This document shows positions 40,106 through 61,042 of a stretch of 64,000 nt of DNA, piece after piece; the stretch's first letter is position 1; each line of letters begins with the position of its first letter. A program made the position numbers and the translations under genes. The stretch spans positions 410,001-474,000 of the forward strand of contig CP048470.1 of the NCBI GenBank assembly GCA_025559845.1. Reading direction: 5' to 3'. This stretch comes from Agrobacterium tumefaciens. Lineage in GTDB: Bacteria; Pseudomonadota; Alphaproteobacteria; Rhizobiales; Rhizobiaceae. The notes beneath the pieces were generated by a model. It made no database searches. It saw nothing but the letters and a program-made list of their open reading frames with translations, and was not told the origin of the DNA.

Positions 40106-40174
40106 GCCCAACTCCCTCAAAAGCTTCAAACACAGATAGCGGGATACTCATCTCGCGCGCAGCTTCACCAGGGC

Positions 40175-40720
40175 TTAGCCCAGCGCGTGATAGCGACCAT
40201 TCTGGTAGACAAGCGAGCCACCATTGCCGATCCGGATTGCTTCCACCTTGCCGATGACGATGACATGGCTGTGCCGTTCGATGGCCTCTTCCACCGTGCA
40301 ATCGATGGCCGCGACGGCGTCTTCCAATATCGGTGCCCCGCTGGCGAGCCTGGTCCACTCCGCGCCGCGATAACGCTCAACGCCCTTCAGGCCACCGATG
40401 CCGGCAAACTGGTTTGCAACGAACTGGTGGTGCTCGCCGATAATATTGATGGCAAGGTGGCCAAAGCGTTGCACAATCGGCCAGGTCGAGGAAGACCGGT
40501 TCAGGGCGACGAGCATTCTTGGAGGATCGACAGACAAGGCAGTGGCCGAGGTCACCGTTGCGCCAGTGCGCAACTCACCCTCACCTGCCGTCACGAGACT
40601 GACACCGCCGCCAAGCGCTCTGAGCGCAACCTTCAGACTATCGGCATCGGCGACACGGTCCGAAACGCTCCCCTTTGCAGCCCTGAACTGTTCATCATTT
40701 GCGGCAAATTGCACTGTCAT
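40175..40720 (-). CDS. NAD(P)H:flavin reductase partner (DszD/HpaC-like)
   Basis: 181 residues of the flavin reductase-like FMN-binding family. After about 27 leading residues come LKVALRALGGGVSLVTAGEG, TSATALSVDPPRMLVALNRS (flavin contact region), FAINIIGEHHQFVANQF-like FGHLAINIIGEHHQF, and the HSHVIVIGKVEAI strand with the conserved His. Such enzymes supply FMNH2 to two-component monooxygenases. It lies between the SsuD gene and the SfnB-like gene on the same strand, and may also serve the DszA/C-like enzymes elsewhere in the window. Confidence 0.87.
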   Translation of the reverse strand: MTVQFAANDEQFRAAKGSVSDRVADADSLKVALRALGGGVSLVTAGEGELRTGATVTSATALSVDPPRMLVALNRSSSTWPIVQRFGHLAINIIGEHHQFVANQFAGIGGLKGVERYRGAEWTRLASGAPILEDAVAAIDCTVEEAIERHSHVIVIGKVEAIRIGNGGSLVYQNGRYHALG

Positions 40721-40886
40721 GGAAAGCTCCCGAAATCATTTGCATTGTCTAAACAGTTAGCGGGCCGGGCGATTTCTACACAGGCATTCTTTTTCATATT
40801 TGATATATTATATGGAATTAATGTTTTAATTGCTGACAACGTGCGGCGTCCCTGCGACGCGAAGCAATCTCAGCGCAGCCAATCGA

Positions 40887-42053
40887 TCATGATCCAGATG
40901 CAAGCTTGATGTTGCCGCCATGACCTCCGCCACCGAAGGCCTGTCTGGCGCCAAAGGATGAGCGGATTTGATTTCGCGGCGCGCCGAGACCAATTTCGGG
41001 GAACAGCAGTTCCGAAACGCGGTACGCTTCCTCTAGATGCGGATACCCGGAGGCAATCACAGTGTCGATGCCGAGATCCTGATATTCCCGCAAGCGGGCA
41101 GCGACGGTTTTGGGTGAACCGACCAAAGCCGTTCCGGCGCCTGACCGAACAAGTCCTATACCTGCCCATAAATTTGGAGAGACTTCCAGACTGTCGCGTC
41201 GGCCGTTGTGCAAAGCCTGCATGCGCGCCTGGCCAACGGAATCGGATGCCTTGGAAAAGACCTCCTGCGCAGCGGCGATCGTTTCATCGGAAAGCTTTGA
41301 AATCAGCCTGTCCGCATCCGCCCACGCTTCTTCGTCGGTCTCTCGCACAATGAAGTGCAGCCGAATTCCGAACGTCACTTCGCGCCCCTGTTTTGCAGCG
41401 GCAGCGCGCACCTTGGCGATCTTTTCGCCAACCTGTGTCGGCGGTTCGCCCCAAGTGAGATATTTGTCGGTGATGCCTGCAGAAAACTCGATCCCCGCGT
41501 CCGACGACCCACCGAAATAAATTGGCGGACGCTCCTGAACGGGCGGCAAGCCCAGTCTTGCGTCATGTGCCTTGATGTATTTTCCGTCGAGATTGGCTTT
41601 GCCGGTTTCAATCAGCGAATTGAAAACTTCGAAAAATTCTCCAGCATGATCGTAGCGCTCGTCATGCGGCAAGAAGATACCGTCACCCGCCAGTTCCTGC
41701 GAACTTCCGCCCACAACAATGTTGAGCAACAAACGCCCGCGAGAGACGCGATCGAGCGTGGATGCCATACGCGCATAATAGGCTGGTGAAGCGACACCCG
41801 GCCTTATGGCAACGAGAAACTTCAGTTTTTCCGTATGGGCAGCGAGATTGGCCGCGAGAATGAACGATTCCTCACAGGCAACGCCTGTTGGAATGAGTAC
41901 GCCAGAATAACCGAGACGATCGGCAGCCTGGGCAATTTCCTTGAAATAGTCGGGATCAGCAGGGCGTGAGAGGTCGTCCGAGCCAAGATAACTCCCGTCA
42001 CCCGAGGAAGGTATGAACCAAAGAAAATCGAGCGGCTTATCTGTCTTGCTCAT
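40887..42053 (-). CDS. ssuD: FMNH2-dependent alkanesulfonate monooxygenase
   Basis: 388 residues from the ATG at 42053 (AGAGG 7 nt upstream). It closely follows E. coli Ssu[41 protein letters not shown] (with the SsuD cysteine), [61 protein letters not shown] and [17 protein letters not shown]. SsuD is a bacterial-luciferase-like enzyme that cleaves alkanesulfonates to aldehyde and sulfite during sulfur starvation. No ssuABC transporter is adjacent. The upstream neighbours are a small protein, a YeeE-type transporter and a rhodanese. Confidence 0.92.
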
Positions 42054-42247
42054 TGAGAAACCTCTGCAGTTTGCCCGGCTGGGCTTCCTAGACCGAGTTA
42101 AAAGGGTAGCCATTTCTCCGAGGCAATTAAGAAATTTTGTTCCAATTTGCGATCAGGAGAGAGAGTTTCTCTCTACGCAAGGATGTAATCACGTCGAACG
42201 CGGCACGACGGGTGCGAAGCCGATCCCGCCTGTCCCACCCTGTTTGA

Positions 42248-42445
42248 CTAGAGCACCGGGTGGAAGCCGAACGTCGCAAATGCGATTTCGGAGATCTCTT
42301 TCCTCTCCAGCTCCAGATCGGTTTTCTCCGGCTCCTTTTCCAAGTCTCCGGTGACTGGCACGTCAAAATCCGGCGATGGCCTCGAAGGAGCGTTACGGGT
42401 CGAGCCAATGAAATCGAACGCAAATGATTGCAGTGCTTGCAGCAT
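42248..42445 (-). CDS. Small hypothetical protein in the sulfur operon
   Basis: 65 residues, starting at an ATG with a perfect GGAGG 6 nt upstream. The sequence begins MLQALQSFAFDFIGSTRNAP and continues with an acidic, charged middle (EKEPEKTDLELERKEISEIA) and ends AFATFGFHPVL. No signal peptide or domain is recognisable. It lies between ssuD and the YeeE-type gene on the same strand. A TTGACG hexamer about 68 bp before its start, on the minus strand, could be a -35 element. The good ribosome binding site is the main argument that it is real. Confidence 0.55.
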   Translation of the reverse strand: MLQALQSFAFDFIGSTRNAPSRPSPDFDVPVTGDLEKEPEKTDLELERKEISEIAFATFGFHPVL

Positions 42446-42617
42446 GGTCAGCCTCCAGCAACGAGATCGTCATATCGTTAAGTGAAAGGCCCGGACCGTC
42501 AAGATTTTCCACTAAATCACTATTCTATTTTCGCGTTCGCACACGATGGTTTCAACCCGGAAAATTCGCAGCCGTGGAAGACAGTTTCAAACGGGTGAAA
42601 GCAACCAAATTCACGTC

Positions 42618-43799
42618 CTATGGCAACGCAAAACGACGTTTGAGGATAAGGCCACAAAAGGCGCCAAGACCGCAAAAGAGTAAGAACACCCAGCCGGACA
42701 AGGCGCCCGCGTGAATGCCTGATAGCAATACGCCAATGGTGCACCCCAACGCGGTCATCCCACCCCAGCCCATCAGCACACCGCCGACAAATCGGGTCGC
42801 CAACCCACCTAGAGATGGCCATGATGGCTTGAACTTCTCCGAAACCAATGCGGAGGCGAGACTTGCAACAATAAGCCCAATGACGAATACGCCGTTTGGA
42901 GAAAGCAGCGTGGTTTTGACCGCGCTTATGCAACCCCGCACCGTATCGAGCCCAGCCAGCGTTTCGGACATCCAGCCTTGCTGGGTGGAAACGGTTCTAA
43001 CAATGCTTCCCAATTCAGCCGTGACGCCAATGGGTGCTAGCCGAAAATACGAGAATGCGCTGATCGTGGCGACGAGGATGCCGGTGACGACAGGGGGCCA
43101 GCGGGCGATGAACACCCGTGTCAGTGCCTGATGCAACTTTGCGTCTGCCGCCTTTTCGGGCGGGATGTCGTTGTTGTTATCCGCATAAAGAACAAGGGCA
43201 ATCAGGATTGCGAGTACGCAAAACGACACAATAAACGCTGGACCGTAGCCCAGGTAGTGCGGCAGCCACACAGGAATGTCGTCGTACACAGCCAGGCTGT
43301 AGAGAAAATTCCAGCTGAGGAACGCCACGAAAAAACCGACGGCCGCACCGGCAAGCGCGAAAATCGATCCAAAGGCACCCTCCCCGAGACGATAAAAATG
43401 ACCGGAGAGGCATGAGCCCGACAAAGCGGCGCCCAGACCGAAAATCGATGCGGAAACCGCGAGCACCCAGCCGACGGGACCAACATGAGCGTTGGGCGGC
43501 AAACGGCCCGGCTGTGGAACAGGGACCCAGGCCATCATGACAATCTGGTAGAACGCGACCCCTGCAATCAAGGCTACAAAAATCGCGACAAGTCCATCAG
43601 ATCGCCTGTTTTCAACGAAATCGCGAAAATTGCAAAGAAAACAAAAGCGACCGCGCTGCAGGACAATGCCGAAGGCTGCCCCGGCAAGCAGCGCAAACCC
43701 CAATTGACGCCCCTCTACCAGCATGGAAACGCCGTAGAAGGTAAGAGCCAGTAAAGCTATCAGGGCAATGCCTGCCCAGCGATGGAAGCGTAAATTCAT
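42618..43799 (-). CDS. YeeE/YedE-family (TsuA-type) thiosulfate/sulfur transporter
   Basis: 393 residues from the ATG at 43799; upstream in-frame starts at 43829 and 43838 fall within or next to an intercistronic stem-loop. About nine to ten membrane helices. The family cysteines are seen in GIVLQRGRFCFLCNFRD, LGAALSGSCLSGHFYRL and GWGGMTALGCTIGVLLSGIH; in the characterised relative TsuA such cysteines line the thiosulfate path. It lies 82 bp downstream of a periplasmic rhodanese and upstream of ssuD, consistent with uptake of sulfane sulfur or thiosulfate. Confidence 0.87.
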   Translation of the reverse strand: MNLRFHRWAGIALIALLALTFYGVSMLVEGRQLGFALLAGAAFGIVLQRGRFCFLCNFRDFVENRRSDGLVAIFVALIAGVAFYQIVMMAWVPVPQPGRLPPNAHVGPVGWVLAVSASIFGLGAALSGSCLSGHFYRLGEGAFGSIFALAGAAVGFFVAFLSWNFLYSLAVYDDIPVWLPHYLGYGPAFIVSFCVLAILIALVLYADNNNDIPPEKAADAKLHQALTRVFIARWPPVVTGILVATISAFSYFRLAPIGVTAELGSIVRTVSTQQGWMSETLAGLDTVRGCISAVKTTLLSPNGVFVIGLIVASLASALVSEKFKPSWPSLGGLATRFVGGVLMGWGGMTALGCTIGVLLSGIHAGALSGWVFLLFCGLGAFCGLILKRRFALP

Positions 43800-43831
43800 G
43801 AGATGCCAGGCAAATCTTTCAATTAACATCG

Positions 43832-43857
43832 CCAGCACGCCTAACGCGGCGTGCTGG
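43832..43857 (-). other. Intercistronic stem-loop between rhodanese and YeeE-type genes
   Basis: Perfect 10-bp inverted repeat CCAGCACGCC/GGCGTGCTGG (43832-43841 and 43848-43857) with a 6-nt loop, 24 bp after the rhodanese stop codon. No T-run follows on the minus strand, so it is probably an mRNA-stabilising or attenuating structure. Confidence 0.5.
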
Positions 43858-43881
43858 TCGTGGATGGGATATGATCAGTGG

Positions 43882-44811
43882 TTATTTGCCGGTCCAGACG
43901 GTTCCAGTCGGGTTGCTGATCGGGACGCCGACGGCATTGCCGTATTCCGTCCATGAGCCGTCGTAGTTGCGGACATCGTATCCAAGTATTTTCTTCAGGG
44001 CGAACCAGGTGTGGCTCGATCGCTCACCAATACGGCAATATGTGATGACCGGAGCTGTACCGTCGATGCCCTTTTCGGCATAAATCGCCTTGATTTCTTC
44101 AGCCGATTTGAACGTTCCGTCCTTGTTGACGATGGTGCCCCATGGGACATTCACCGCGCCTGGAATATGGCCCGCCCGCACTGACAGCTCCTTGACGCCA
44201 TCGGGCGCAAAGATTTTGCCGGAATACTCATCTGCCGAGCGGATATCGACGAGCTTGATATTGTGCTTGCCCTCAGCCACAGCGACGACATCGATAAAGC
44301 GGGCGCGAACTGACGGGTCGCTGTCCTTCAACGTCAGTGTTGTTGCCGTCGTTTTTGGCGCGGAGGTATCCAGAGGCAGACCCTCAGCCTCCCAAAGCTT
44401 ACGACCACCGTCCAGAAGCTTCACCCGATCGCCCAGACCATAGGTTTCAAAGATCCATGCTCCCCAGGCTGCGAACCAGTTGTTGTTATCGCCGTACAAG
44501 ACAATCGTTGTATCATCGCCGATACCGGCCTGCTGCAACAGGCTCTGGAAATGCTCCCGAGAGGCTATATCGCGACGTTCCTTGTCGACGAGATCGGTGT
44601 GCCAGTTCAGATTGGTCGCGCCGGGAATATGGCCACGCTCGTAAACGCCGGTGTCGACACTGACTTCGAAAACCTTGACCTTCGGATTTTCCAGATTTTG
44701 CTTTAGCCAGTCCGCGGTAACCAGCGCGTCCGACGCATTGGCCGATGCCAGACCGACCGTTGAAAGCAACAATCCCCCGAATACGGACGCCAGCAACTTG
44801 ATATTGTACAT
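43882..44811 (-). CDS. Periplasmic thiosulfate/3-mercaptopyruvate sulfurtransferase (two rhodanese domains)
   Basis: 309 residues from the ATG at 44811; residues 1-24 (LLASVFGGLLLSTVGLASANA) form a signal peptide, so it is periplasmic, unlike the cytoplasmic SseA. The first, inactive rhodanese domain contains ERGHIPGATNLNWHTDLV and VLYGDNNNWFAAWGAWIFET. The second contains IRSADEYSGKIF and the active-site loop YCRIGERSSHTW with the persulfide cysteine. It transfers sulfane sulfur between thiosulfate and acceptors. It leads the operon that continues with the YeeE-type transporter, the small protein and ssuD. Confidence 0.9.
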   Translation of the reverse strand: MYNIKLLASVFGGLLLSTVGLASANASDALVTADWLKQNLENPKVKVFEVSVDTGVYERGHIPGATNLNWHTDLVDKERRDIASREHFQSLLQQAGIGDDTTIVLYGDNNNWFAAWGAWIFETYGLGDRVKLLDGGRKLWEAEGLPLDTSAPKTTATTLTLKDSDPSVRARFIDVVAVAEGKHNIKLVDIRSADEYSGKIFAPDGVKELSVRAGHIPGAVNVPWGTIVNKDGTFKSAEEIKAIYAEKGIDGTAPVITYCRIGERSSHTWFALKKILGYDVRNYDGSWTEYGNAVGVPISNPTGTVWTGK

Positions 44812-44880
44812 TTCCCTACCCCTTCCTGATTTGATGACAATGGAAAGGTAAGAAGAAAGCGGAGGCACGCGAAGAAACCA

Positions 44881-45900: not shown

Positions 45901-47112
45901 TTAGCGAACTGTATGACGCACTTCAGCGGGGTTTTCGGCCGCGCTTTTCCTGATCAGTTCGCGACCAATGATCGTACGGATCATATGGCTCTGCGGCGCA
46001 TGTGCTCTTGCAGTGATCGCATCCCGGTGATGGCGCTCCAGATGATAGTCCCGGCGCAAACCGCGATTGCCGCCAAGCTCTAGTGCAAGATCGGTGATCG
46101 TTACCGCATTCTCGATGACCACATGGCGTACGGCCAGTGCATCGGTTCCGACATTTTTCTTGTCATCAATGTCGCGGCCGACGGAGACCAGGAGGCGTCT
46201 GTTCGCGGCAATCAACACCTCGATTTGCCCGAGCGCTTCCTGAATTCTAGGGATTGATGAAAGTGGTGCGCCGAGGCTCGCCGGCACATGGCCGGTCAGA
46301 TGCTTTATCAGATCATTGCGGGCTGAGACGGCCACGCCATGGTAGACAGCCGCCAGCAGGACAAAAAAGTTATACCCGTCGACCTCATCCCGACGAAGAG
46401 GCTCACTCGCCGGCTGCTCGGCAACGACGTTTTCCAGAGGCACGCGGACGTCATTTAAAAGCAAGTCATCACTCGCGGTCGCAAACATGCCCGTCGCGTC
46501 CCAGGCCTTCTCACGGCCGATACCATCGAGGTCCAGAGGAACCAGCAACTGGATCAGTCGCGGTGTCTCCTCAACCGTCGTCGCCAGAACGATCGCCCAT
46601 TTCAGACCGGGTAGCCCGGTTACGAAACTCTTGCGACCGTTGACGACCCAAGCGTCTCCGTCGATGCGCGCGACCGTCTCTGGCAATCCACCGTGGGCTG
46701 GAGAACCAATGCCTGGCTCGGCCTGTGCATTATTGAGCAAAGCCGGTCCGGAAAGATTTGCCGTCAAGACTTTGGCAGCAAGAACATCAGGCCACTTGCC
46801 GCGGCGGATGCTGCCGTGAACACTATAATGCATCGCAAGAACAAGGGCGGTAGAGGGGTCACCTTCAGCAATCGCTGCGATGACAGCCTGGGCTGTCTCG
46901 ATCCCTTCGCCCCACCCCCCGGTTTCCTTAGACTGGATCAGGCTGAGAAGGCCTGACCTGAAAAGCTCGATAAAATTCTCTGCAGGAAATTCCCCTGTCC
47001 TGTCGTGAGCGGCTGCGGTCTTACCGAAGCCCTCAGCAAGCGATCTGGCAATATCGATCGGGTCTAAAGTGGGCCTTTGTGACGGCGCCACAGCGGAAAT
47101 CAGGGCCGTCAT
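45901..47112 (-). CDS. Acyl-CoA dehydrogenase-fold flavin monooxygenase, SfnB/DszC-like
   Basis: 403 residues. The fold pattern of acyl-CoA dehydrogenases is complete: LFRSGLLSLIQSKETGGWGE, the central domain with NAQAEPGIGSPAHGGLPETV and WVVNGRKSFVTGLPGLKWAI, and a C-terminal helical bundle ending LALELGGNRGLRRDYHLERH. DszC, a flavin-dependent monooxygenase of dibenzothiophene desulfurisation, belongs to this group (417 residues). The catalytic acid of true dehydrogenases is not evident. Its ATG overlaps the stop of the DszB-like gene (ATGA), so the two proteins are made together, and oxidation of an organosulfur compound is the best-supported role. Confidence 0.83.
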   Translation of the reverse strand: MTALISAVAPSQRPTLDPIDIARSLAEGFGKTAAAHDRTGEFPAENFIELFRSGLLSLIQSKETGGWGEGIETAQAVIAAIAEGDPSTALVLAMHYSVHGSIRRGKWPDVLAAKVLTANLSGPALLNNAQAEPGIGSPAHGGLPETVARIDGDAWVVNGRKSFVTGLPGLKWAIVLATTVEETPRLIQLLVPLDLDGIGREKAWDATGMFATASDDLLLNDVRVPLENVVAEQPASEPLRRDEVDGYNFFVLLAAVYHGVAVSARNDLIKHLTGHVPASLGAPLSSIPRIQEALGQIEVLIAANRRLLVSVGRDIDDKKNVGTDALAVRHVVIENAVTITDLALELGGNRGLRRDYHLERHHRDAITARAHAPQSHMIRTIIGRELIRKSAAENPAEVRHTVR

Positions 47113-48140
47113 GCAACTGCCCTTTCATTCGCCAGAACAAAACGGTCATCGATCCAGGTGTGAATGTCGAAGTTGTCCTCAAGGAAACCCCATTCGTGCA
47201 GGAAATCCTTGTAGTGGCTAATGGCCGTTACGAGTTCCTTGTCGAGGCCAAGGCCAAGATGGCGATGAACATCGGGGCCATTGGCAGCCAGAACCTGTTC
47301 TTCAGTGGCACCGGCTTCGCGCGCTATGAAGCGTCTTGTCTCTTCCGGGTGCTCTTCTGCCCAGACAGACGCCTTGCGGATTGCGTCAACCAGGCGCTCG
47401 ACAAGGTCCGGACGTTCATCGGCCAGGCGAGCATCAACTGTCAGAACCCTCGGCGAACCCGAATTGATACGGATGTTCGGGTCGGAATGAAACCCGAACT
47501 CAATCACCTGGACTGCGCCAATCAGATTTGCGACAGAAACACCGGCGGTCCCTTTGACAAAGATCGCATCGACCTCGCCGCGCAAGAGTGCAGCGATCTC
47601 CTCTCCAAACGATTGTCGGCGCTTCAGACCGAACAGCGAAGGTCCCTCCTGCGTTTCCAACACGGAATGGTCCTGGACGATATCGATGAGCTCAACATCG
47701 CCGATCCGCAAACCTCCAAGAGACAAGGCCGAGACGATGCCCTTCAGCGCCGTTGCGCGCATGAAATCGACAATGCCCTCCGGCCTGCGCGGTACGCCAA
47801 CGCGGCGCCCTGCTAGATCAGCAACCGTTCGAATACCTGTTTGCGGCAGCGTAATGATTGCCTGAAACTCGTCCGTCCATGTAATGCCGACAAGACGTGT
47901 ATCGCGTCCTTCCGATCGGGCGCGGATGGGCGGAACGTTGCCACCGTGCCTGAATGACCATTCCAGCGTGTGGTTGAAATGGCTTTGCCTGATGGAACGA
48001 TCCGGCGAATCGATGATCGATTTCAGGGCAATACCGACATCGCCAAAGGCCTTTTCGAGATAACCAAGCTGGACGGCCAGACCGACCGGGGTCGGAACCG
48101 GGCAGCGCGTATACCAGATTTCAGATAGTGGAGTGCTCAT
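47109..48140 (-). CDS. DszB-like desulfinase homologue (NitT/TauT binding-protein fold, cytoplasmic)
   Basis: 343 residues from the ATG at 48140 (AAGGG 7 nt upstream). The fold is that of NitT/TauT binding proteins, but there is no signal peptide; coding starts at once with MSTPLSEIWYTRCPVPTPVG. It resembles 2'-hydroxybiphenyl-2-sulfinate desulfinase DszB throughout: YTRCPVP against YSNCPVP, SHFNHTLEWSFRHGGNVPP against the DszB His60-Arg70 region, ADLAGRRVGV, and RPDLVERLVDAI. DszB's catalytic Cys27, His60 and Arg70 correspond to C13, H54 and R64, and the His-to-Arg spacing of 10 is identical. It is coupled to a DszC-like gene. It probably cleaves a sulfinate to sulfite; an automatic label of sulfonate-binding protein would miss this. 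Confidence 0.75.
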   Translation of the reverse strand: MSTPLSEIWYTRCPVPTPVGLAVQLGYLEKAFGDVGIALKSIIDSPDRSIRQSHFNHTLEWSFRHGGNVPPIRARSEGRDTRLVGITWTDEFQAIITLPQTGIRTVADLAGRRVGVPRRPEGIVDFMRATALKGIVSALSLGGLRIGDVELIDIVQDHSVLETQEGPSLFGLKRRQSFGEEIAALLRGEVDAIFVKGTAGVSVANLIGAVQVIEFGFHSDPNIRINSGSPRVLTVDARLADERPDLVERLVDAIRKASVWAEEHPEETRRFIAREAGATEEQVLAANGPDVHRHLGLGLDKELVTAISHYKDFLHEWGFLEDNFDIHTWIDDRFVLANERAVA

Positions 48141-48246: not shown

Positions 48247-49854
48247 TCAGGACGCAACGATGTGCGCAAAGGCAAGGCTTCCTGAGACCCCTTCGGCCCC
48301 GACCGTGTGGCCCGATATCCGTTTGTTGAAGATGGTAATCTCAGGGGCCGCGACGATATCGATCGCAGGGACATCCTCGATCAGGATCTGCTGGATCTCT
48401 TTCCACTGGGCAACGCGTTTGACCGGATCAATTTCGACCGCCGCCGCTTCCAGCAGGGAATCAACCTTCGGGTTGCTGTAGGCCGCACCATTGGAAAAAG
48501 GCACGCCTTTCTTGAAGTTCTTTGACCAATAAAGACGCTGAACACCAACCGTCGGATCGAACAAATTGCTCATGCCCTCATAGGCAAAATCGAAATCGCG
48601 ATCGGTGTAGATGCGTTTCGTATAGGTCGCGAAGTCCTGGGTACGCACCGTGACATCAATGCCGACCTTCGCCAAAGCCTGACGGATATAATCCGCTCCG
48701 CGCGGATAAGCCTCGGTACTCGGAACGTAATCCAGATTGAGCTTGAAGCGAATGCCGTTCGCGTCTCGTTTGTAGCCTGCATCATCCAGCAGCGCTTCCG
48801 CAGTCTTGAGATCGATCGGATAGGTTTTCAGATCGTCGACAAACCATCGCGTCAGCTTTGGGTTGATGGGCCCGGTGATCGGCGATCCGTATCCGTAATT
48901 GACAGTATTGAAGATGACGTTGCGATCAATCACATGGGCAAACGCGCGACGGACGCGCACGTCCTTGAACACCTCTTTTTCGAGATTGAATTCAACGCGG
49001 CTGATGGAATTTGAGTACTGATAACCATTGGTCTCAAAGGCCAGGTCCGGCAATTCCTTCAGGCGATCAAGGTCGCTGTAGGCCACCGGTGTGCTTGGCG
49101 CGAGATCGATCTCGCCAGTTTCGATCGCAATGGCTCGGGCGGCCGCATCGGGAATGAAACGAACGATAAGCTGATCCAGATAGGGGCGTGGCGCATCCCA
49201 ATAGTCTGGATTGCGCTCATAAACGACATGGCTGCCACGCACCCACGCCTTGAATTTAAACGCTCCCGTGCCGATTGGTGCCAGATTGACCGGGTTTTCG
49301 GTCACCTTCGTTCCTTCATAGAGATGCTTGGGCACGATCGGCGATTCCGCAGCGGCGAGCGCGGTGATCAGGTAGGGTGCGGGCTTCGATAGAACCAAGA
49401 CTGCCGTCAGCTCGTCCGGAGTTTCCACATCCGTCAAATTCAGGAACGTGTTGCGCCCGCGCGGATGGACCTCCTTGAGGGTCCGGATTGAGAACGCGAC
49501 ATCGGCAGCGGTAAACGGCTTGCCATCATGCCACTTTACACCAGACCTCAGATTGAAGGTGTATCGCAGGCCATCGTCACTGATCGCCCAGGACTTCGCA
49601 AGAAGTGGTTGGGGGTTGAGGTCGAAGTCGTAGGTCAAGAGCCCCTCGGTGACCTTCGGCGATACATAGACGGAGTTGTAGGCGGTGTGGGCGATCGTTG
49701 TCAGAACAGGTGGCTCGGATGATATCAGCAACGTCGCAGTGCCGCCGCGTGCCGGCTCAGCGGCACCCACCTTCAAACCCGACATTGATGCCGCGCCGAG
49801 CGCGACCGACGCCAGAAGGAAACTCCGTCTCGTCGTGCGATTGAAATCAGTCAT
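48247..49854 (-). CDS. Peptide-type ABC transporter substrate-binding protein with Tat signal (organosulfur cluster, 1)
   Basis: 535 residues from the ATG at 49854 (AAGGAGAG 8 nt upstream); a longer frame from 49908 lacks support. The N-terminus MTDFNRTTRRSFLLASVALG is a twin-arginine export signal (TRRSFLL), so the protein is exported folded. The SBP_bac_5 body shows SVYVSPKVTEGLLTYDFDLN, RYTFNLRSGVKWHDGKPFTA and GTGAFKFKAW. It is divergent from the permease and ATPase genes at 50086-54026 and very likely feeds them. It closely resembles the binding proteins at 58836 and 61092. Confidence 0.88.
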   Translation of the reverse strand: MTDFNRTTRRSFLLASVALGAASMSGLKVGAAEPARGGTATLLISSEPPVLTTIAHTAYNSVYVSPKVTEGLLTYDFDLNPQPLLAKSWAISDDGLRYTFNLRSGVKWHDGKPFTAADVAFSIRTLKEVHPRGRNTFLNLTDVETPDELTAVLVLSKPAPYLITALAAAESPIVPKHLYEGTKVTENPVNLAPIGTGAFKFKAWVRGSHVVYERNPDYWDAPRPYLDQLIVRFIPDAAARAIAIETGEIDLAPSTPVAYSDLDRLKELPDLAFETNGYQYSNSISRVEFNLEKEVFKDVRVRRAFAHVIDRNVIFNTVNYGYGSPITGPINPKLTRWFVDDLKTYPIDLKTAEALLDDAGYKRDANGIRFKLNLDYVPSTEAYPRGADYIRQALAKVGIDVTVRTQDFATYTKRIYTDRDFDFAYEGMSNLFDPTVGVQRLYWSKNFKKGVPFSNGAAYSNPKVDSLLEAAAVEIDPVKRVAQWKEIQQILIEDVPAIDIVAAPEITIFNKRISGHTVGAEGVSGSLAFAHIVAS

Positions 49855-50085: not shown

Positions 50086-51108
50086 ATGAGCGACTTGGAC
50101 GGTTACGGATGGGAGCCGATGTCAAATTCGAAACGGATTTTCTCTCAGGCACGTCGTGTCGCCATTCAGGCGGTTCCGACAGTCCTTGGAATTGTCATTC
50201 TGAACTTCTCTCTGCTGCAACTTGCACCGGGCGACGCAGCCGATGTCCTCGCTGCTGAAGCTGGTTCGGCGACGGTCGAGACCATGGCCGAAATCCGCTC
50301 CCGCTTCGGACTGGATCTGCCTGTTCTTCATCAGCTGATGAACTATCTGGGCAATCTGGCGCAGTTCAGCCTCGGTTATTCTCCGCGCTACGGCATGCCT
50401 GTTGCAGATCTCATCGGTCAGAGACTACCCGGGACCCTTGCGCTGATGGGCGCAGCACTCGGAATCGCCATTGTCGCAGGCGTATTCCTTGGTGCGATCA
50501 TGGCGCTTTTCTCCGGCAAGCTGCCAGACCGGATTATCTCGATTGGATCACTGATCTTCTATTCTGTACCGGGGTTCTGGATCGGGTTAATGCTGATCCT
50601 GACATTTTCCGTGAAGCTCGGCTGGCTTCCGTCGGGTGGGGACAGCACGATTGGTAGCAGTCTCACGGGCTTCGACGCGGTCGTCGACAGAGCCCGCTAT
50701 ATCGTCCTACCGGCTTTGTCGCTCGCCTTATATTTTCTGGCGATCTATGCGCGGCTGACCCGCGCCGCGATGCTGGAGGTCAAATCACAGGATTACGTCC
50801 GCACGGCACGCGCGAAGGGTGTTTCGCCCTGGCGGCTGACAATTCGCCATATCCTGCGCAATGCACTCATTCCAATCACCACGATGGCCGGCATGCATAT
50901 TGGCGGCCTGCTTGGCGGCGCCGTCGTCGTCGAGACAGTCTTCAGTTGGCCAGGCCTCGGTCGACTGGCGTTCGAAGCCGTCATGGCCCGCGACTTCAGT
51001 GTCCTGCTTGGCATCCTGCTCCTGTCCTCTCTGGTCGTCATCGTCGTTAATGCAGCCGTAGACCTCCTGCAGGCATGGCTAGACCCTCGCATTGGAGAAA
51101 GCCGATGA
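50086..51108 (+). CDS. Peptide-type ABC transporter permease, DppB-like (organosulfur cluster)
   Basis: 340 residues from the ATG at 50086 (GGAGC just upstream); an ATG at 50119 with GGGAG close by gives 329 residues and a more usual DppB N-terminus, so the start is open. Six membrane helices, LLQLAPGDAADVLAAEAGSA (the DppB PGD motif region), an EAA loop at LEVKSQDYVRTARAKGVSPW, and the C-terminal WLDPRIGESR. It opens an operon that runs through DppC, two ATPases, an aldo-keto reductase and a DszC-like enzyme to a LysR gene. Confidence 0.9.
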   Translation: MSDLDGYGWEPMSNSKRIFSQARRVAIQAVPTVLGIVILNFSLLQLAPGDAADVLAAEAGSATVETMAEIRSRFGLDLPVLHQLMNYLGNLAQFSLGYSPRYGMPVADLIGQRLPGTLALMGAALGIAIVAGVFLGAIMALFSGKLPDRIISIGSLIFYSVPGFWIGLMLILTFSVKLGWLPSGGDSTIGSSLTGFDAVVDRARYIVLPALSLALYFLAIYARLTRAAMLEVKSQDYVRTARAKGVSPWRLTIRHILRNALIPITTMAGMHIGGLLGGAVVVETVFSWPGLGRLAFEAVMARDFSVLLGILLLSSLVVIVVNAAVDLLQAWLDPRIGESR

Positions 51109-52118
51109 GTTCCACGAACACCACCGCACTCCTGCACGCTCCCGAGATCACCGCTCAGGCAAAGGCCGGCACACTCGACACCCAAAACGCCTTGCCCCCC
51201 AAGGACGACAAAACCTGGCCTTACCTTCATGCCCCTGACGCCCTGTCGGCCAGGACCGCATCGGTACCGCGCAGAGGATTGCGTCGTGAAATCAAGGTCT
51301 TTCTGAAAAACCCGAATGCGATTGTCGGGTTGCTCTTCCTTGCCACCGTAATCGTCACCGCACTTCTCGCCCCGCTTGTCTATCCCGGCGATCCCCTGGA
51401 GATGGTAGCGCGTCCGTTCCTGTGGCCCGGTCAGAACGGAGCCTTTCCGCTTGGCACGGATTCCATGGGCCGCGATGTGCTGGCCGGGATTGTACATGGT
51501 GCGCGCATCTCTTTGACCGTCGGCGTCGTTGCCACGCTGATCGGGCTCACGATCGGCATTTCGGTCGGCGCCTTTGCCGGGTACTTCGGCGGTGTCATTG
51601 ATGACGTCCTCGTTAAGCTGATCGAAATCTTCCAGACGTTGCCAAATTTCGTACTGCTCGTTGTACTCGTCGCCATTGCCCAGCCATCCGTCACAACGGT
51701 GACCTCCGCAATCGGTATCATTACCTGGCCCTTGGTCGCCCGGCTGACGCGCGCCGAATTCCGCGCAATCCGCGAAAAAGATTACGTCCTGGCGGCCCGC
51801 AGCCTGGGATACGGACACGCGCGCATTGTCTTCACCGAAATCCTGCCCAACGCCCTGCCTCCCATCATCGTGACGTCATCTGTCATGGTCGCCGGTGCGA
51901 TCCTGATGGAAGCAGCACTGTCCTTTATGGGTCTCGGCGACCCCAACCGTGTCTCCTGGGGTTCGATGATCGGATCCGGACGCGACGTGATCAGAACCGC
52001 CTGGTATCTCACCGCACTGCCGGGCCTTGCCATCGTCTTCACCGTCATATCGCTGAACCTCATCAGTGACGGGCTGAACGACGCACTCAATCCCCGCTTT
52101 TCGGAGGAACGCAGTTGA
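51105..52118 (+). CDS. Peptide-type ABC transporter permease, DppC-like (organosulfur cluster)
   Basis: 337 residues from the ATG at 51105, which overlaps the DppB stop (ATGA) and has GGAGAA upstream; ten extra residues of the open frame lie within DppB. An unusually long N-terminal cytoplasmic region of about 65 residues precedes the first helix. Then come NGAFPLGTDSMGRDVLAGIV (the DppC motif), five further helices and the EAA loop at REKDYVLAARSLGYGHARIV. It overlaps the next ATPase gene (TTGA). Confidence 0.9.
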   Translation: MSSTNTTALLHAPEITAQAKAGTLDTQNALPPKDDKTWPYLHAPDALSARTASVPRRGLRREIKVFLKNPNAIVGLLFLATVIVTALLAPLVYPGDPLEMVARPFLWPGQNGAFPLGTDSMGRDVLAGIVHGARISLTVGVVATLIGLTIGISVGAFAGYFGGVIDDVLVKLIEIFQTLPNFVLLVVLVAIAQPSVTTVTSAIGIITWPLVARLTRAEFRAIREKDYVLAARSLGYGHARIVFTEILPNALPPIIVTSSVMVAGAILMEAALSFMGLGDPNRVSWGSMIGSGRDVIRTAWYLTALPGLAIVFTVISLNLISDGLNDALNPRFSEERS

Positions 52119-53113
52119 CCCCTTTGGTGGAAGTCCAGGATCTGTCCGTTGGCTTTGGCACGGCACAGCCCGTAAAAGGTGTGAGCTTCAAGGTGCACTC
52201 CGGTGAGATGTTGGCAATCGTTGGCGAAAGCGGTTCAGGTAAGTCCCTGACGGCCCTCTCTCTGATTGGACTGTTGCCATCGAACGCAAAGATCGGTGGC
52301 CGCATTTTACTGGAAGGTAAGGATCTTTTACCTCTTTCCGAGCGCCGCTGGCGGTCTATTCGCGGCCGAGACATCGGCATGATCTTTCAGGAACCGATGA
52401 CCTCGCTCAACCCTGTGCTGACGGTTGGCGAACAGATCATTGAGGTCCTGCGCATTCACGAGCGCATTAATAAGCACGAGGCGCGCAAACGGGCCATCGA
52501 ACTCCTGGAACTCGTCAACATTCCGGAAGCTCGACGCCGTGTCGACGACTACCCTCATCAGCTTTCAGGGGGCATGCGCCAGCGTGTGATGATCGCCATC
52601 GGCGTCGCCTGCAACCCGAAACTGCTGATCGCCGATGAAGCAACAACAGCGCTCGATGTCACGATACAGGCACAAATCCTCCAGCTCCTCGACAATCTTC
52701 GACGCGATCTCAACATGGCGGTCGTGCTTATCACACACGACCTCGGCATCGTCGCACAATGGGCTGATCGGGTTATGGTAATGTATGCGGGACGAAAGGT
52801 GGAAGAGGGCTTACCGGAGCCCGTGTTCTCCCATCCCTACCATCCCTATACGCGTGGATTGCTTGCCGCCTCGCCAAGAGCAGAGGACGGACAACACTAC
52901 CGAGATGGCCCACTGATCGAAATCCCGGGGTCCATCGTCTCCGCAACGGGTGAACGAGGCTGCGCCTTCCGTCCGCGCTGTCCGGACGCCCGCGGTTTCT
53001 GCGGGCAGTTTGTTCCCCCGCTCCGCTCTATTTCCGAAGGGCGTTATGCCGCCTGCCCGTTTGTGTCCGAAATTTCAGGGGAGGTCTCCGATGGCGCTTT
53101 TGTCAGTGCATAA
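52115..53113 (+). CDS. Peptide-type ABC transporter ATPase, DppD-like
   Basis: 332 residues. The start codon is TTG at 52115, overlapping the DppC stop (TTGA), with GGAGG 8 nt upstream; no ATG fits. Walker A is [12 protein letters not shown] (about 34-45), signature LSGGMRQR, Walker [13 protein letters not shown] (ATT in place of the commoner PTT) and switch [14 protein letters not shown]. The C-terminal oligopeptide-transporter region has [20 protein letters not shown], the cysteine cluster of DppD/OppD that can hold an Fe-S centre. Confidence 0.9.
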
Positions 53114-54026
53114 ACTGTCCACCGAATATGCTGGAGGGCGCGGAACGGTTCGCGCCGTCGATGACGTCTCCCTGGAGATAGAGGCCGGTGAAACCGTTGC
53201 GCTGGTGGGAGAATCCGGCTGCGGCAAGTCTTCGCTCGGCAAATCTCTGATGCGCCTTGTTGAACCGTCCTCGGGACAGGTCGTGTTCAATGGCGCCGAC
53301 GTAACGGCGATGTCATCGACGGAACTGCGTGGCATCCGCCGGCGCATACAAATGATCTTTCAGGACCCATTCGCCTCTCTCAACCCTCGCCAGACAGTCC
53401 GCACGATCCTTACTGGCCCACTGAAAGTGCATGGCATCGGCGACAGGAAGCAACAACAGGAAATTGTCGAGGCAATCGTCGCGCAGGTCGGTTTGCCCGA
53501 GGATTCCCTCGACCGCTATCCGCACGAATTTTCCGGCGGTCAGCGTCAGCGCATCGGCATCGCCCGTGCCCTGATCCTAGAACCGGAACTGGTCGTCTGT
53601 GACGAACCGGTTTCCGCGCTCGATCTATCGATCCAGGCCCAAATTCTCAACCTTCTGGTAGAGATGAAGAACCGGCTGTCGCTGTCCTACCTCTTCGTCT
53701 CGCACGACCTGTCCGTGGTCCGTTATTTTTCTGATCGTGTGCTCGTCATGTACCTTGGAAAAATTGTTGAAAGCGCACCGACTGCGGAATTGTGGGCTGC
53801 ACCTCGCCACCCCTACACCCGTGCCTTGCTGGCTGCCGTCCCAGATCCTTCACGTCGCAAACAGGCCGCACCGATTTCTGGTGATCTTCCAAGTCCTCAC
53901 AACCCGCCATCAGGCTGTCGGTTTCACACCCGGTGTCCATTGGCGAGCGACCTCTGTCGCGAGAAGGCACCCGAATACCAGTTCTTCGGCAAGAACCACG
54001 CTGTGGCTTGCCATCACGCACAATAA
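53091..54026 (+). CDS. Peptide-type ABC transporter ATPase, DppF-like
   Basis: 311 residues from the ATG at 53091 (GGGGAGG 6 nt upstream), overlapping the end of the DppD-like gene by 23 bp; the open frame further upstream lies within that gene. Walker A is GESGCGKSSLGK (about 39-50), signature FSGGQRQRIGIARALILEPE, Walker B LVVCDEPVSALD, and the C-terminal CRFHTRCPLASDLC cysteine motif. Fourth transporter gene of the operon; it pairs with DppD to drive import. Confidence 0.92.
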   Translation: MALLSVHKLSTEYAGGRGTVRAVDDVSLEIEAGETVALVGESGCGKSSLGKSLMRLVEPSSGQVVFNGADVTAMSSTELRGIRRRIQMIFQDPFASLNPRQTVRTILTGPLKVHGIGDRKQQQEIVEAIVAQVGLPEDSLDRYPHEFSGGQRQRIGIARALILEPELVVCDEPVSALDLSIQAQILNLLVEMKNRLSLSYLFVSHDLSVVRYFSDRVLVMYLGKIVESAPTAELWAAPRHPYTRALLAAVPDPSRRKQAAPISGDLPSPHNPPSGCRFHTRCPLASDLCREKAPEYQFFGKNHAVACHHAQ

Positions 54027-54045: not shown

Positions 54046-55101
54046 ATGGTCGACTATCGTTATCTCGGGCGCAGCGCGCTGAAAGTTTCGCCGCTGAGCT
54101 TAGGCACCATGATGTTTGGTGGCCCGACACCGGACGAGACTGCATTCCGGATCATCGACAAAGCCCGTGAACAAGGCATCAACTTCATCGACACGGCGGA
54201 TGTCTATCACGACGGAAAGTCCGAGGAAGTTGTGGGCCGTGGCATCAAGGCACATCGCGATCATTGGGTGCTGGCGACGAAATTCGTCAACTCGCACACC
54301 AAGGGCCCGAACCTTGGCGGCCATTCGCGTAAATGGGTCATCGAAACAGTCGAAAACTCCCTGCGGCGTCTCAATACCGACTACATCGATATCCTCTATT
54401 TCCACCGCGCCGTATTCGATGCTCCACTGGAAGAGCCGGTTCGTGCCATCGCCGACCTGATCCGCGCCGGCAAGTTGCGTTACTTCGGTGTTTCGAATTT
54501 CCGTGGCTGGCGTATCGCGGAAATATCGCACATCGCAGATCAGCTTGGCATCGATCGCCCTGTCGCCAGCCAGCCGCTTTACAACATCGTCAACCGCACG
54601 GCGGAAGCCGAGCAACTGCCGGCCGCCCATCATTATCGTCTCGGCGTCGTTTCCTACTCGCCACTGGCGCGTGGCGTTCTGACTGGCAAATACCAGCCTG
54701 GTCAGGAGCCTGGCGCCGACACACGTGTTGGCCGTGGCGACAAGCGCGTCCTGGAAACGGAATGGCGTCCAGAATCTGTTGAAATCGCCCAGAAGGTTGC
54801 AGCGCATGCCGCCGCCAAGGGCGTCTCCGCGGCGGACTTCGCGCTTGCATGGGTGCTGAACAACAAGTTCGTCACCGCCGCCATCACGGGCCCCCGCACC
54901 GAGGAACATTGGGACAACTACGTTCGCGCCCTCGACGTCACGATCGATGCCGACGATGAGGCACTGGTCGACAGCCTGGTCACGACTGGTCACCCCTCGA
55001 CACCCGGCTTTAACGATCCAAGTCACCCGGTCGAAGGTCGCGTTCCGCGCAATCTGGCACCCGCGACACGCCCGGCTGTAAAGCCTCGCGCCGTCGCGTG
55101 A
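54046..55101 (+). CDS. Aldo-keto reductase
   Basis: 351 residues from the ATG at 54046 (AAGGAG 9 nt upstream); the frame extending back to 53737 lies in the DppF gene. The (beta/alpha)8 aldo-keto reductase tetrad is visible: Asp and Tyr in NFIDTADVYHDGKSEEVVGR, Lys in WVLATKFVN, His in DILYFHRAVFD. NADPH-binding residues lie in the C-terminal part (VSYSPLARGVLTGKYQPG, AITGPRTEEHWDNY). It most resembles YajO/YghZ-like oxidoreductases. As the fifth gene of the transporter operon it may reduce an aldehyde formed by C-S cleavage. A terminator-like hairpin follows it. Confidence 0.88.
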   Translation: MVDYRYLGRSALKVSPLSLGTMMFGGPTPDETAFRIIDKAREQGINFIDTADVYHDGKSEEVVGRGIKAHRDHWVLATKFVNSHTKGPNLGGHSRKWVIETVENSLRRLNTDYIDILYFHRAVFDAPLEEPVRAIADLIRAGKLRYFGVSNFRGWRIAEISHIADQLGIDRPVASQPLYNIVNRTAEAEQLPAAHHYRLGVVSYSPLARGVLTGKYQPGQEPGADTRVGRGDKRVLETEWRPESVEIAQKVAAHAAAKGVSAADFALAWVLNNKFVTAAITGPRTEEHWDNYVRALDVTIDADDEALVDSLVTTGHPSTPGFNDPSHPVEGRVPRNLAPATRPAVKPRAVA

Positions 55102-55160: not shown

Positions 55161-56402
55161 ATGTCCAAGACCAATATAGCGACGACCGGCACTGCTTCCC
55201 CCTCCGAGGTGCCGAGCCGCGACGAAATACTGGAGAGGGCGAAGGAAATCGCAGATTACGCGGCCAAGAATGCTGCGTTGCGTGAACGGGAGCGGATTCT
55301 GCCGTTCGATGTTTTCAAGCTGATCAAGGACGCCAAACTCGGAACCCTGCGTATTCCGGAAGCCAAAGGCGGACCTGGCGGATCAATCTCCGACTACATT
55401 GAAGTACTGATGATCCTCGGGGAGGCGGACAGCAATATCCCCCATGCGCTGCGCAGCCATTTCAACTTTACTGAACATCTCGCCCTCACGCCCGTCGAAC
55501 TTGAAGATCGCCGGCACCTCGAAAACGTTCTGGCAGGCAAGCTTTTCGCAGGCGCCAGCACGGAACAGGGCACCAAACGACCGGGGGAAATCACCACACA
55601 ACTGAGTACCGATGGCGATCGCTACAGGCTGAATGGCAGGAAGTGGTACGCGACCGGCACAGCGTTTGCAGACTTCGGCACTTTTAGTGCTGTCGACGAA
55701 CAGGGCAATCCGATTGGTGTCTTGATACCCCTCGACCGCGAGGGCATCACAATCCTGGACGACTGGGACAGCATGGGCCAGAGGATGACTGCAAGTGGTG
55801 GCGTTCGCCTCGATAATGTGGAGGTACTCCCGCACGAACTTACGACACGGCGGCTTTCCAGCCAGGTCGGGCGTCACTCATCTGCCCTGCGTCAGCTTCA
55901 TCTGGCCGCATCGGCAACCGGTGCTGTTCAAGGCGCGGTCAATGATGGCATTGATTACGTTCTCAACCAGGCTCGCACTACCCTTCACAGCTCAGCCGAG
56001 ATTGCCAGCCAGGACCCGTTCGTTCAAAAAACTGTCGGTGAACTGAGTGCTGGCGCTTTTGCCGTCAAAACACTCATTCGGGAAGCTGCACGAACACTCG
56101 ACAAGACAGCTGCCGCGTTTGCCGCAGGCGACGAAGAGGCATTCGAAGCCGCATTGCTGGAAGGCTCACTTGCAACGGCGCGCACGCAGATCATTGCCTC
56201 CCAGATTTCCCTGAACGTAGCGACAAGCCTCTTTGAACTTGGCGGCGGCTCGGCAACCTCGGCGGAACGGAACTTCGACCGGCACTGGCGTAATATCCGC
56301 ACCGTCTACAATCACAATCCGCTGCTGCACAAGGCGCGCGTGGTTGGAGATTACTTTCTGAACGGCACCACAACGCATCTTAGGGAAGGCCGGGTTTTCT
56401 GA
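55161..56402 (+). CDS. Acyl-CoA dehydrogenase-fold flavin monooxygenase, DszC/SfnB-like
   Basis: 413 residues from the ATG at 55161 (AAGGA 8 nt upstream), close to DszC (417). It has the three-domain acyl-CoA dehydrogenase layout: LGTLRIPEAKGGPGGSISDY and ALRSHFNFTEHL in the helical part, GASTEQGTKRPGEITTQLST and RYRLNGRKWYATGTAFADFG in the beta domain, and the C-terminal VATSLFELGGGSATSAERNF and FDRHWRNIRTVYNHNPLLHK. The last segment matches the DszC-type active-site end and differs from CoA-dependent enzymes. Likely oxidises an organosulfur substrate with FMNH2. The LysR gene follows 21 bp later. Confidence 0.85.
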   Translation: MSKTNIATTGTASPSEVPSRDEILERAKEIADYAAKNAALRERERILPFDVFKLIKDAKLGTLRIPEAKGGPGGSISDYIEVLMILGEADSNIPHALRSHFNFTEHLALTPVELEDRRHLENVLAGKLFAGASTEQGTKRPGEITTQLSTDGDRYRLNGRKWYATGTAFADFGTFSAVDEQGNPIGVLIPLDREGITILDDWDSMGQRMTASGGVRLDNVEVLPHELTTRRLSSQVGRHSSALRQLHLAASATGAVQGAVNDGIDYVLNQARTTLHSSAEIASQDPFVQKTVGELSAGAFAVKTLIREAARTLDKTAAAFAAGDEEAFEAALLEGSLATARTQIIASQISLNVATSLFELGGGSATSAERNFDRHWRNIRTVYNHNPLLHKARVVGDYFLNGTTTHLREGRVF

Positions 56403-57413: not shown

Positions 57414-58766
57414 TCAGGCGCGAATTCTGCTTGTTTCATTGATGGTGTGGATGTTCTGCGGCCGTGGCAGACCATAATGGTCGCGAAGCGTGTCACCGGA
57501 ATAGTCGGCGCGAAACAGTCCACGCTTTCTCAGAAGTGGCACAACCTCATCAATGAATATATCAAATCCGCCCGTGAGCCACGGCGGCATGATATTGAAG
57601 CCATCGGCAGCTCCTTCCCGGAACCAGGTCTCGATCCAGTCGGCGACCTGTTCTGGGGTTCCTGCGATGACCTTGTGGCCGCGACCGCCAGCAAGCCGGT
57701 GGAGCAGTTGCCGAATGGTCGGGTTTTCACGATCGATCACATCAAGCACCAGTTGATGCCGGCTACTGTCTGCACGGGCTCTCGTCGCCTCCACAGCCTC
57801 GCTTGGAAGCGGCTTGTCGAGATCGGCATCACCAAGATCGATACCTGTGATCCTGGTCAGTTGTGTCAGCGAAAAAGCGGGCTGGATGAGATCGTTGAAC
57901 TCGGCTTCCAGCTTTTTCGCATCTGTCTCCGTACCGGCGATAAAAGGACTGATCCCCGGCAGGACCTTCACATGGGCCGGATTGCGACCAGCACTTGCGA
58001 CCCTCTTCTTGATGTCCGAATAGAATGCCTTTGCGCTTTCTATCGTCTGATGTGCGGTGAAGATCGCTTCGGCATATTGGGCGGCAAACCCGCGCCCGTC
58101 GTCGGAGGAGCCAGCCTGAACATAGACAGGCCGACCCTGCGGCGAACGCGACACATTCAGTGCACCCTGGACACGGTAAAACTCGCCTTCGTGATTGGCG
58201 GGATGAATACGATCGGTATCGGCGAAAAGCCCGCTTTCTTTGTCGGCAACAATAGCGTCGTCTTCCCAACTGTCCCAAAGCTTGGTTACGACATCAACGA
58301 ACTCGCTCGCCTGTCGATATCGATCCGCATGTGACGGGTGTTTTTCAAGATTGAAGTTTGCGGCGGCAGCATCCACTGACGTGGTCACGATGTTCCAGCC
58401 GACGCGGCCACCACTGATGTGATCGACGGATGCAAACAGACGCGCGAGGTTGTAGGGCTCATAATAGGTCGTGGACGCGGTTGCGATGAAACCGATCTTT
58501 TCCGTGACAGCCGCAAGGGCCGCCAGCATAGTGATTGGCTCCAGCCGGTGTTTTGCGGAGTATCTGATATTCCCGTCGAGAACTGGCGCATCAGCGAAGA
58601 ATATCGCATCGAGCTTTGCCGCTTCAGCGCGCCTTGCGATATCCTGATAAAGCCGGATATCGGTGACGCGATGCGGCTCGGACTGCGGATGGCGCCATGC
58701 AGCCTCATGATGCCCGCCGGGATAAACAAATGCGTTGAGTACGAGTTTTTCGGACGATCTTGCCAT
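57414..58766 (-). CDS. FMNH2-dependent monooxygenase, NtaA/SnaA/DszA family
   Basis: 450 residues from the ATG at 58766 (GAGGA 5 nt upstream); DszA has about 453. Family features are LVLNAFVYPGGHHEAAWRHP at the N-terminus, AKLDAIFFADAPVL, LEPITMLAALAAVTEKIGFI, the TASTTYYEPYNLARLFASVD segment, HISGGRVGWNIVTTSVDAAA, and the C-terminal DGFNIMPPWLTGGFDIFIDE. Such luciferase-like enzymes use FMNH2 to open aromatic sulfones (DszA), nitrilotriacetate or EDTA. With DszB- and DszC-like genes nearby, a sulfone substrate is plausible. It follows a Tat-type binding-protein gene and an intervening terminator. Confidence 0.87.
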   Translation of the reverse strand: MARSSEKLVLNAFVYPGGHHEAAWRHPQSEPHRVTDIRLYQDIARRAEAAKLDAIFFADAPVLDGNIRYSAKHRLEPITMLAALAAVTEKIGFIATASTTYYEPYNLARLFASVDHISGGRVGWNIVTTSVDAAAANFNLEKHPSHADRYRQASEFVDVVTKLWDSWEDDAIVADKESGLFADTDRIHPANHEGEFYRVQGALNVSRSPQGRPVYVQAGSSDDGRGFAAQYAEAIFTAHQTIESAKAFYSDIKKRVASAGRNPAHVKVLPGISPFIAGTETDAKKLEAEFNDLIQPAFSLTQLTRITGIDLGDADLDKPLPSEAVEATRARADSSRHQLVLDVIDRENPTIRQLLHRLAGGRGHKVIAGTPEQVADWIETWFREGAADGFNIMPPWLTGGFDIFIDEVVPLLRKRGLFRADYSGDTLRDHYGLPRPQNIHTINETSRIRA

Positions 58767-58793
58767 GAGATCCTCATCCTTTTGCCGTTTGCG

Positions 58794-58828
58794 AAAAAAT
58801 GTGGCGCGTCCGGACAATCCGACGCGCC
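58794..58828 (-). terminator. Rho-independent terminator between binding protein and DszA-like gene
   Basis: On the minus strand GGCGCGTC and GACGCGCC form an 8-bp stem (58803-58810 and 58821-58828), extended by GGA/TCC pairing, followed by ACA and six T. It lies 8 bp after the binding-protein stop codon. Confidence 0.7.
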
Positions 58829-58835
58829 GCAGTCA

Positions 58836-60431: not shown

Positions 60432-60460
60432 CTTTGTCTCCGAAAAAATGGGGCCGACCT

Positions 60461-60799: not shown

Positions 60800-61042
60800 G
60801 CCACCCATCATTGCTAACTGCGATGGAGTGAGAGTGCCGGGAGGTGAGGAGAGCGTCCAGAAACGTATTCTTGCCTCGAAAAGAAGAATAAATTTGCGAA
60901 CCAATCAGCCGGAAACGGCTTTCTTCAGAAGAATTTTCCGATGCGAATTTATTTCGGTACCGCTCTCCATCAAGCAATGCGATTGCCAGAAATTCCAAAG
61001 GGACGCGAATGCCGAAAACCGCCGGCAACCGGACTGAGACAT

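What the first reader, a model, noticed from the sequence alone, without database searches (positions are those of the whole stretch)
45901..48140. DszB-like desulfinase hidden in a NitT/TauT-type protein, coupled to a DszC-like oxygenase
The protein at 47109-48140 has the fold normally annotated as a sulfonate-binding protein, but it has no export signal. It keeps the catalytic set of the desulfinase DszB: C13 in YTRCPVP, H54 and R64, with the same His-x9-Arg-x-Gly-Gly spacing (RHGG against RFGG). Its gene overlaps by 4 bp a DszC-like flavoprotein gene. DszB homologues outside Rhodococcus-type 4S operons are rarely recognised. This could be a C-S bond cleaving enzyme for sulfinates in an alphaproteobacterium.
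Basis: partly seen in the sequence, partly recalled or inferred. Interest (0 to 1): 0.87.

Follow-up and report, generated by a model that had tools for sequence, protein, structure and literature searches.

The report
Rhizobial sulfinate-cleaving enzyme resembling DszB
A protein that databases mostly label as part of a nutrient importer looks instead like an enzyme inside the cell that frees sulfur from organic molecules, a cousin of the enzyme used to strip sulfur from fuel, and it sits in a gene cluster found in many of its plant-associated relatives.

The parts
47109..48140 (-). DszB-type putative cytosolic sulfinate desulfinase, 343 aa (C13, T11, H54, R64, G67)
45901..47112 (-). Acyl-CoA-dehydrogenase-fold flavoprotein, remotely DszC-like, putative reduced-flavin monooxygenase; overlaps the desulfinase gene by 4 bp
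48247..49851 (-). SBP_bac_5 family binding protein (peptide/opine type), upstream on the same strand
50086..51108 (+). DppB-type permease, divergent transport unit
   Evidence: named from sequence and conserved order; no family scan run on it
51075..52118 (+). DppC-type permease
   Evidence: no family scan run on it
52115..53113 (+). DppD-type ATPase
   Evidence: no family scan run on it
53094..54026 (+). DppF-type ATPase
   Evidence: no family scan run on it
54052..55101 (+). Aldo/keto reductase; present in 68 of 70 well-flanked loci
55161..56402 (+). Second DszC/SfnB-type flavoprotein (SfnB 305.9 bits, DszC 133.6 bits, both below cut-off)
40175..40720 (-). Flavin reductase domain protein, a candidate donor of reduced flavin (inference)
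57414..58766 (-). NtaA/DmoA-family FMN monooxygenase, 39% identical to DszA of plasmid pMyong1; not adjacent to the desulfinase here

Best explanation
The protein is a cytosolic DszB-type sulfinate desulfinase with the periplasmic-binding-protein fold. An organosulfur compound, probably polar or carboxylated, is imported by the SBP_bac_5/DppBCDF transporter. It is oxidised by the adjacent DszC-like flavoprotein, and in some lineages also by an LLM monooxygenase, to a sulfinate. R64 and G67 hold the sulfinate; C13, with H54 and T11 drawing off charge, gives a proton to the carbon and SO2/sulfite leaves for cysteine synthesis (the proton mechanism is the one computed for DszB; attack by the cysteine on sulfur has also been proposed there). 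The aldo/keto reductase reduces a carbonyl product. Shown here: homology, conserved residues, lack of an export segment, predicted fold, tree, conserved cluster. Inferred: desulfinase activity, order of steps, kind of substrate, roles of the oxygenase and the reductase.
Against: No activity data. DszB pocket residues L152, W155 and L226 are not kept. Some relatives lost the set: 6 of 241 rows (3 genomes) have Ser for Cys; P0210 and P0212 have Ala and Asp there and a Devosia third copy has Ser and Tyr; one Sphingobium copy has Asp for His. Even in DszB, H60Q loses only about 17-fold, and R70 was taken as structural. Identity to DszB is only 26-29%. The DszC-like oxygenase fails the DszC and SfnB cut-offs. 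No DszA-type gene is adjacent here. Active-site distances were not measured.
Confidence: 0.72

Rival explanations
1. It is an ordinary NitT/TauT-type sulfonate binding protein that lost its signal peptide or is exported by an unrecognised route.
For: Same fold; Pfam NMT1 over its cut-off and SsuA_fam at 82.8 bits; SsuA structures come next after DszB.
Against: Below the SsuA_fam cut-off of 163.5 bits; no export segment seen before the fold; splits from 12 and 14 binding proteins with 100% bootstrap; the cluster has its own SBP_bac_5 binder; no binder row has the full Cys/His/Arg set (one, L105, has a Cys in that column).
Confidence: 0.05
2. It is a cytosolic enzyme of the same fold that cuts another bond (another C-S substrate, a decarboxylase-like proton transfer, or a thiamine-precursor reaction like Thi5).
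Against: DszB scores far above these and shares the Cys/His/Arg set; neighbours are sulfur-type oxygenases. Catalytic residues of Thi5 and the others were not compared.
Confidence: 0.15
3. It is a non-catalytic cytosolic sulfinate or sulfonate sensor or carrier.
For: Tandem relatives with Ser for Cys exist in three genomes of another family of the phylum.
Against: The cysteine is kept in 233 of 241 rows.
Confidence: 0.08

Closest known systems
DszB, 2'-hydroxybiphenyl-2-sulfinate desulfinase (PDB 2de2/2de3)
   Same: Fold, start close to the motif without export segment, Y-[ST]-x-C-P, His and Arg at the same spacing, RxGG, followed by an overlapping flavoprotein gene (B before C with a 4-bp overlap in plasmid pMyong1 too).
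   Different: 26-29% identity, separate sister clade, L152/W155/L226 not kept, invariant R12 and H57 instead of N26 and Y63, importer and aldo/keto reductase in the cluster, no DszA gene adjacent.
SsuA/TauA sulfonate-binding proteins
   Same: Fold and distant sequence similarity; the label that most named relatives carry.
   Different: No export segment, its cluster has a Dpp-type transporter with its own binder, has the catalytic set, groups with DszB.
DszC / SfnB / MsuC-type flavin monooxygenases (for the neighbour)
   Same: Acyl-CoA dehydrogenase fold; H-x-P where SCAD has Y-E-G and DszC H-D-P.
   Different: 25% identity to DszC; closer to PDB 5z8t/5gj7; below DszC and SfnB cut-offs.
sma2085-sma2077 and sma2087-sma2101 operons of Sinorhizobium meliloti pSymA (PMC5940162)
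   Same: Divergent layout and numbers (five and eight genes, if the split DszC-like gene counts as two) fit the homologous cluster in L122.
   Different: Identified by layout and counts only (the held record has no gene tags); the parts of the paper read give no function.

Membership tests
DszB (2'-hydroxybiphenyl-2-sulfinate desulfinase) | Catalytic Cys in Y-[ST]-x-C-P near the N-terminus | tested here: met
   C13
DszB (2'-hydroxybiphenyl-2-sulfinate desulfinase) | His60 and Arg70 of RxGG at the same spacing; hydroxyl residue at S25 | tested here: met
   H54, R64-H-G-G, T11
DszB (2'-hydroxybiphenyl-2-sulfinate desulfinase) | No export signal | tested here: met
   hydropathy scan only
DszB (2'-hydroxybiphenyl-2-sulfinate desulfinase) | Groups with DszB against binding proteins | tested here: met
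   as sister clade, not inside the 15 DszB rows; trees rooted on the binders
DszB (2'-hydroxybiphenyl-2-sulfinate desulfinase) | Pocket residues L152, W155, L226 (invariant in 20 DszB sequences) | tested here: not met
   so not filed as DszB proper
DszB (2'-hydroxybiphenyl-2-sulfinate desulfinase) | Gene set dszA-dszB-dszC | tested here: not met
   B and a remotely DszC-like gene adjacent, no DszA-type gene next to them
DszB (2'-hydroxybiphenyl-2-sulfinate desulfinase) | C13, H54 and R64 converge in the cleft | not testable with these tools
DszB (2'-hydroxybiphenyl-2-sulfinate desulfinase) | Desulfinase activity | not testable with these tools
   needs an assay
SsuA/TauA binding proteins (TIGR01728) | Score over the curated cut-off | tested here: not met
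   82.8 of 163.5 bits
SsuA/TauA binding proteins (TIGR01728) | Signal peptide | tested here: not met
   hydropathy scan only
DszC (NF043015), for 45901-47112 | Score over the curated cut-off | tested here: not met
   71.3 of 850 bits
DszC (NF043015), for 45901-47112 | H-x-P in place of the dehydrogenase Y-E-G | tested here: met
   HAP in the window protein and in 74 of 74 orthologous ORFs aligned

The most novel reading that the evidence does not exclude
A widespread, uncharacterised branch of sulfinate desulfinases, hidden under binding-protein labels, ends an import-oxidise-desulfinate pathway for a carboxylated (perhaps heteroaromatic or amino-acid-derived) organosulfur compound of soil or plants. 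In rhizobia it is often carried on large plasmids and sometimes in two paralogous copies, and the fuel-desulfurising DszB is one sister branch of this natural family.
Probability: 0.45. Interest if true: 0.75.

Novelty: new variant of a known kind. Interest (0 to 1): 0.6.

Why it matters
DszB cuts the C-S bond of a sulfinate, and slow turnover and product inhibition limit its use in biodesulfurization (PMC12168087, start of abstract and passages). A natural sister family with the same catalytic set, another pocket and a conserved importer would give new enzymes to test and point to an unknown sulfur source for rhizobia. It would also correct a label carried by many genomes.

Tried and rejected

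Led nowhere: of ten paper searches, nine listed no title or abstract that I recognised as a study of this branch; most lists were capped (for example 20 of 167, 20 of 81, 20 of 37, 10 of 34) and the library is open-access only. led to PMC5940162. One listed paper, PMC4839641 (passages), does report 4S enzymes with DszB from a proteobacterium, a Chelatococcus; the DszB peptide quoted matches R. erythropolis DszB, so it does not speak for this branch. PMC7661421 (one passage) mentions putative desulfinases in a Gordonia without details. The substrate could not be named.

Rows dropped: the tree left out 5 of 62 rows (four SBP rows and a divergent Devosia copy); the tree left out five SBP rows of the 62 and added 11. 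One search counted only the 70 of 80 loci with at least 7.9 kb on both sides; these 80 are the best of 124 found with peptides of the window protein, so they are its closer relatives. The pattern count presupposes RxGG and a Pro after the Cys, includes duplicate loci, and 2 of 241 rows did not match (P0095, an N-terminal fragment; a divergent Devosia copy). The orthologues in the H-A-P count were those over 380 bits and 350 aa.

Full report
What is there. The minus-strand ORF 47109-48140 encodes 343 residues with a single cysteine, C13, in WYTRCPVPTP, H54 in SHF, and R64-H65-G66-G67. The downstream flavoprotein ORF 45901-47112 overlaps it by 4 bp. Upstream on the same strand lies an SBP_bac_5 protein (48247-49851), and divergently a DppB-C-D-F type transporter, an aldo/keto reductase (54052-55101) and a second DszC/SfnB-type flavoprotein (55161-56402). 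The genome holds a second copy, 58% identical, at G000:C2:476089-477084, about 2 kb beyond the window, next to an SDR and an LLM monooxygenase closest to SfnG.

Tree. With 15 DszB rows, 30 family rows and 12 binding proteins, each group is one side of a branch (support 99/99 to 100/99). A second set with 11 more rows, among them Streptomyces, Sphingobium, Burkholderia and another Rhizobium, keeps this (39 family rows 97/91, DszB 100/99, 14 binders 100/100). Both trees are rooted on the binders, which are mostly from one genome, and several have long branches, so their inner order means little. The window protein is in a sister clade of DszB, not among DszB.

Catalytic residues. DszB's activity is ascribed to C27, the H60-S25 pair, R70 and G73, with RxGG conserved in homologues; C27S is inactive, H60Q loses about 17-fold, and R70 was assumed to be structural (PMC6100217, abstract and passages). 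These align with C13, H54, T11, R64 and G67. In the family the C/H/R pattern is found in 233 of 241 rows, Ser for Cys in 6 (three genomes), no match in 2. Distant members vary more: P0210 has Ala and P0212 Asp for the Cys, one Sphingobium copy has Asp for the His. No binder row has the full set; one, L105, has a Cys in that column. F61 of DszB has the counterpart F55; F203 pairs with F170 in one alignment and with no Phe in the other. L152 and W155, invariant in 20 DszB sequences, fall in a gap of the family (in one search W155 faces T130), and L226 faces G197. R12 and H57 are invariant in 28 family sequences where DszB has N26 and Y63. I infer a more polar, cationic pocket, hence a smaller or carboxylated substrate. 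The alignment around residues 123-140 and 157-180 is the least certain part.

Location. From either start of the window gene there is no hydrophobic segment before the motif. Where a start is visible, the clade begins 5 to 26 residues before the YxxC tyrosine, as does DszB (23 in the Rhodococcus row), whereas binders of the same genome have about 28 to 48 residues with a hydrophobic core. Two family rows with hydropathy 1.3 to 1.4 in the stop-to-stop reading (L077, L061) have these stretches before or at the first Met.

The neighbour. The flavoprotein's closest PDB relative is an acyl-CoA-dehydrogenase-type protein (5z8t, 1.5e-52), then dehydrogenases (about 1e-25), TdsC (7e-15), DszC (3e-14) and methanesulfinate monooxygenase (3e-8). 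It misses the DszC and SfnB cut-offs. Where SCAD has Y-E-G it has H-A-P, as do 74 of 74 orthologous ORFs aligned, and DszC has H-D-P. So a monooxygenase is likelier than a dehydrogenase; this is inference.

Conservation of the cluster. The genome scan found 124 relatives and kept the best 80. Of the 70 loci with at least 7.9 kb on both sides, 62 have the DszC-like gene next, 68 the aldo/keto reductase, 69 DppB, 70 DppD or F, 63 an SBP_bac_5 gene, 60 an LLM gene anywhere in the stretch, 16 a second DszB-like gene. In Ensifer, Devosia, Neorhizobium and Chelatococcus loci the order is dszB1-dszC-dszB2 with an LLM gene further on. Distribution is patchy: 8 of 299 genomes across the phylum at E 1e-10, of which two matches are partial and fall with the binders, and 16 of 41 relatives, all in the same genus; in three of those 16 the first copy is broken or partial. 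More distant members have another context: in Streptomyces and in another Rhizobium an LLM gene and other ABC transporters, in Sphingobium an ssu-type transporter and an NtaA-family LLM.

A handle in a model organism. S. meliloti 1021 pSymA carries the cluster: five genes one way (DppB, C, D, F, AKR) and, the other way, DszB1, a DszC-like gene split in two ORFs, DszB2, an SDR and three more genes ending with an LLM. [quoted passage not shown] The match is by layout and gene count; the held record has no tags.

What is known. Of the 120 homologues listed, five carry names of this kind: 'Dibenzothiophene desulfurization enzyme B' (Devosia sp. DBB001), 'desulfurase' (three) and a name beginning 2'-hydroxybiphenyl-2; most of the other named ones are 'ABC transporter substrate-binding protein' or similar. 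The (mostly capped) listings of searches in an open-access library showed no study of this branch, so print elsewhere is not excluded.

Verdict. A DszB-type protein of a separate branch, very probably a cytosolic sulfinate desulfinase, in a conserved organosulfur uptake and oxidation cluster. Activity and substrate remain to be shown.

Noticed in passing
L108, L109, L110, L114, L115, L116 (genomes G058, G062, G146): Tandem DszB-like genes; in the two of these genomes whose rows were printed, one copy reads YTRCPVP and its neighbour YTHSPVP with His and Arg kept: a natural counterpart of the inactive C27S mutant of DszB.
   Followed up: partly
L083:6072-7124 (minus), G000:C2:476089-477084: Second DszB-like copy, 58% identical, with an SDR and an SfnG-like LLM monooxygenase; an SDR and an LLM gene also lie downstream of the second copy in an Ensifer locus (L062) and in S. 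meliloti (L122).
   Followed up: partly
L127 (Sphingobium sp. TomTYG65 plasmid, 2522-9365): Three DszB-like genes (annotated monooxygenase, one as soxB) with an NtaA-family LLM; one of the three has Asp for the His.
   Followed up: partly
window 57414-63913: LLM monooxygenase (best PDB match MoxC/YtnJ), two SBP_bac_5-like genes and an amidohydrolase, which recalls S-alkylcysteine salvage clusters (recalled, not tested).
   Followed up: no
window 39164-44868: Second sulfur block on the minus strand: SsuD (TIGR03565 over cut-off), flavin reductase, SfnB-type N-terminal piece, YeeE/TsuA-type transporter, rhodanese.
   Followed up: no
L122:10752-12265 (S. meliloti 1021 pSymA): The DszC-like gene is split into two ORFs in different frames in this record; genuine or sequencing error not checked.
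   Followed up: no
L125:4947-6122 (Rhizobium johnstonii pRlX5): Very divergent DszB-like protein (about 25% identity) with Cys, His and RxGG kept, beside a homocysteine S-methyltransferase family gene and an ABC transporter.
   Followed up: partly
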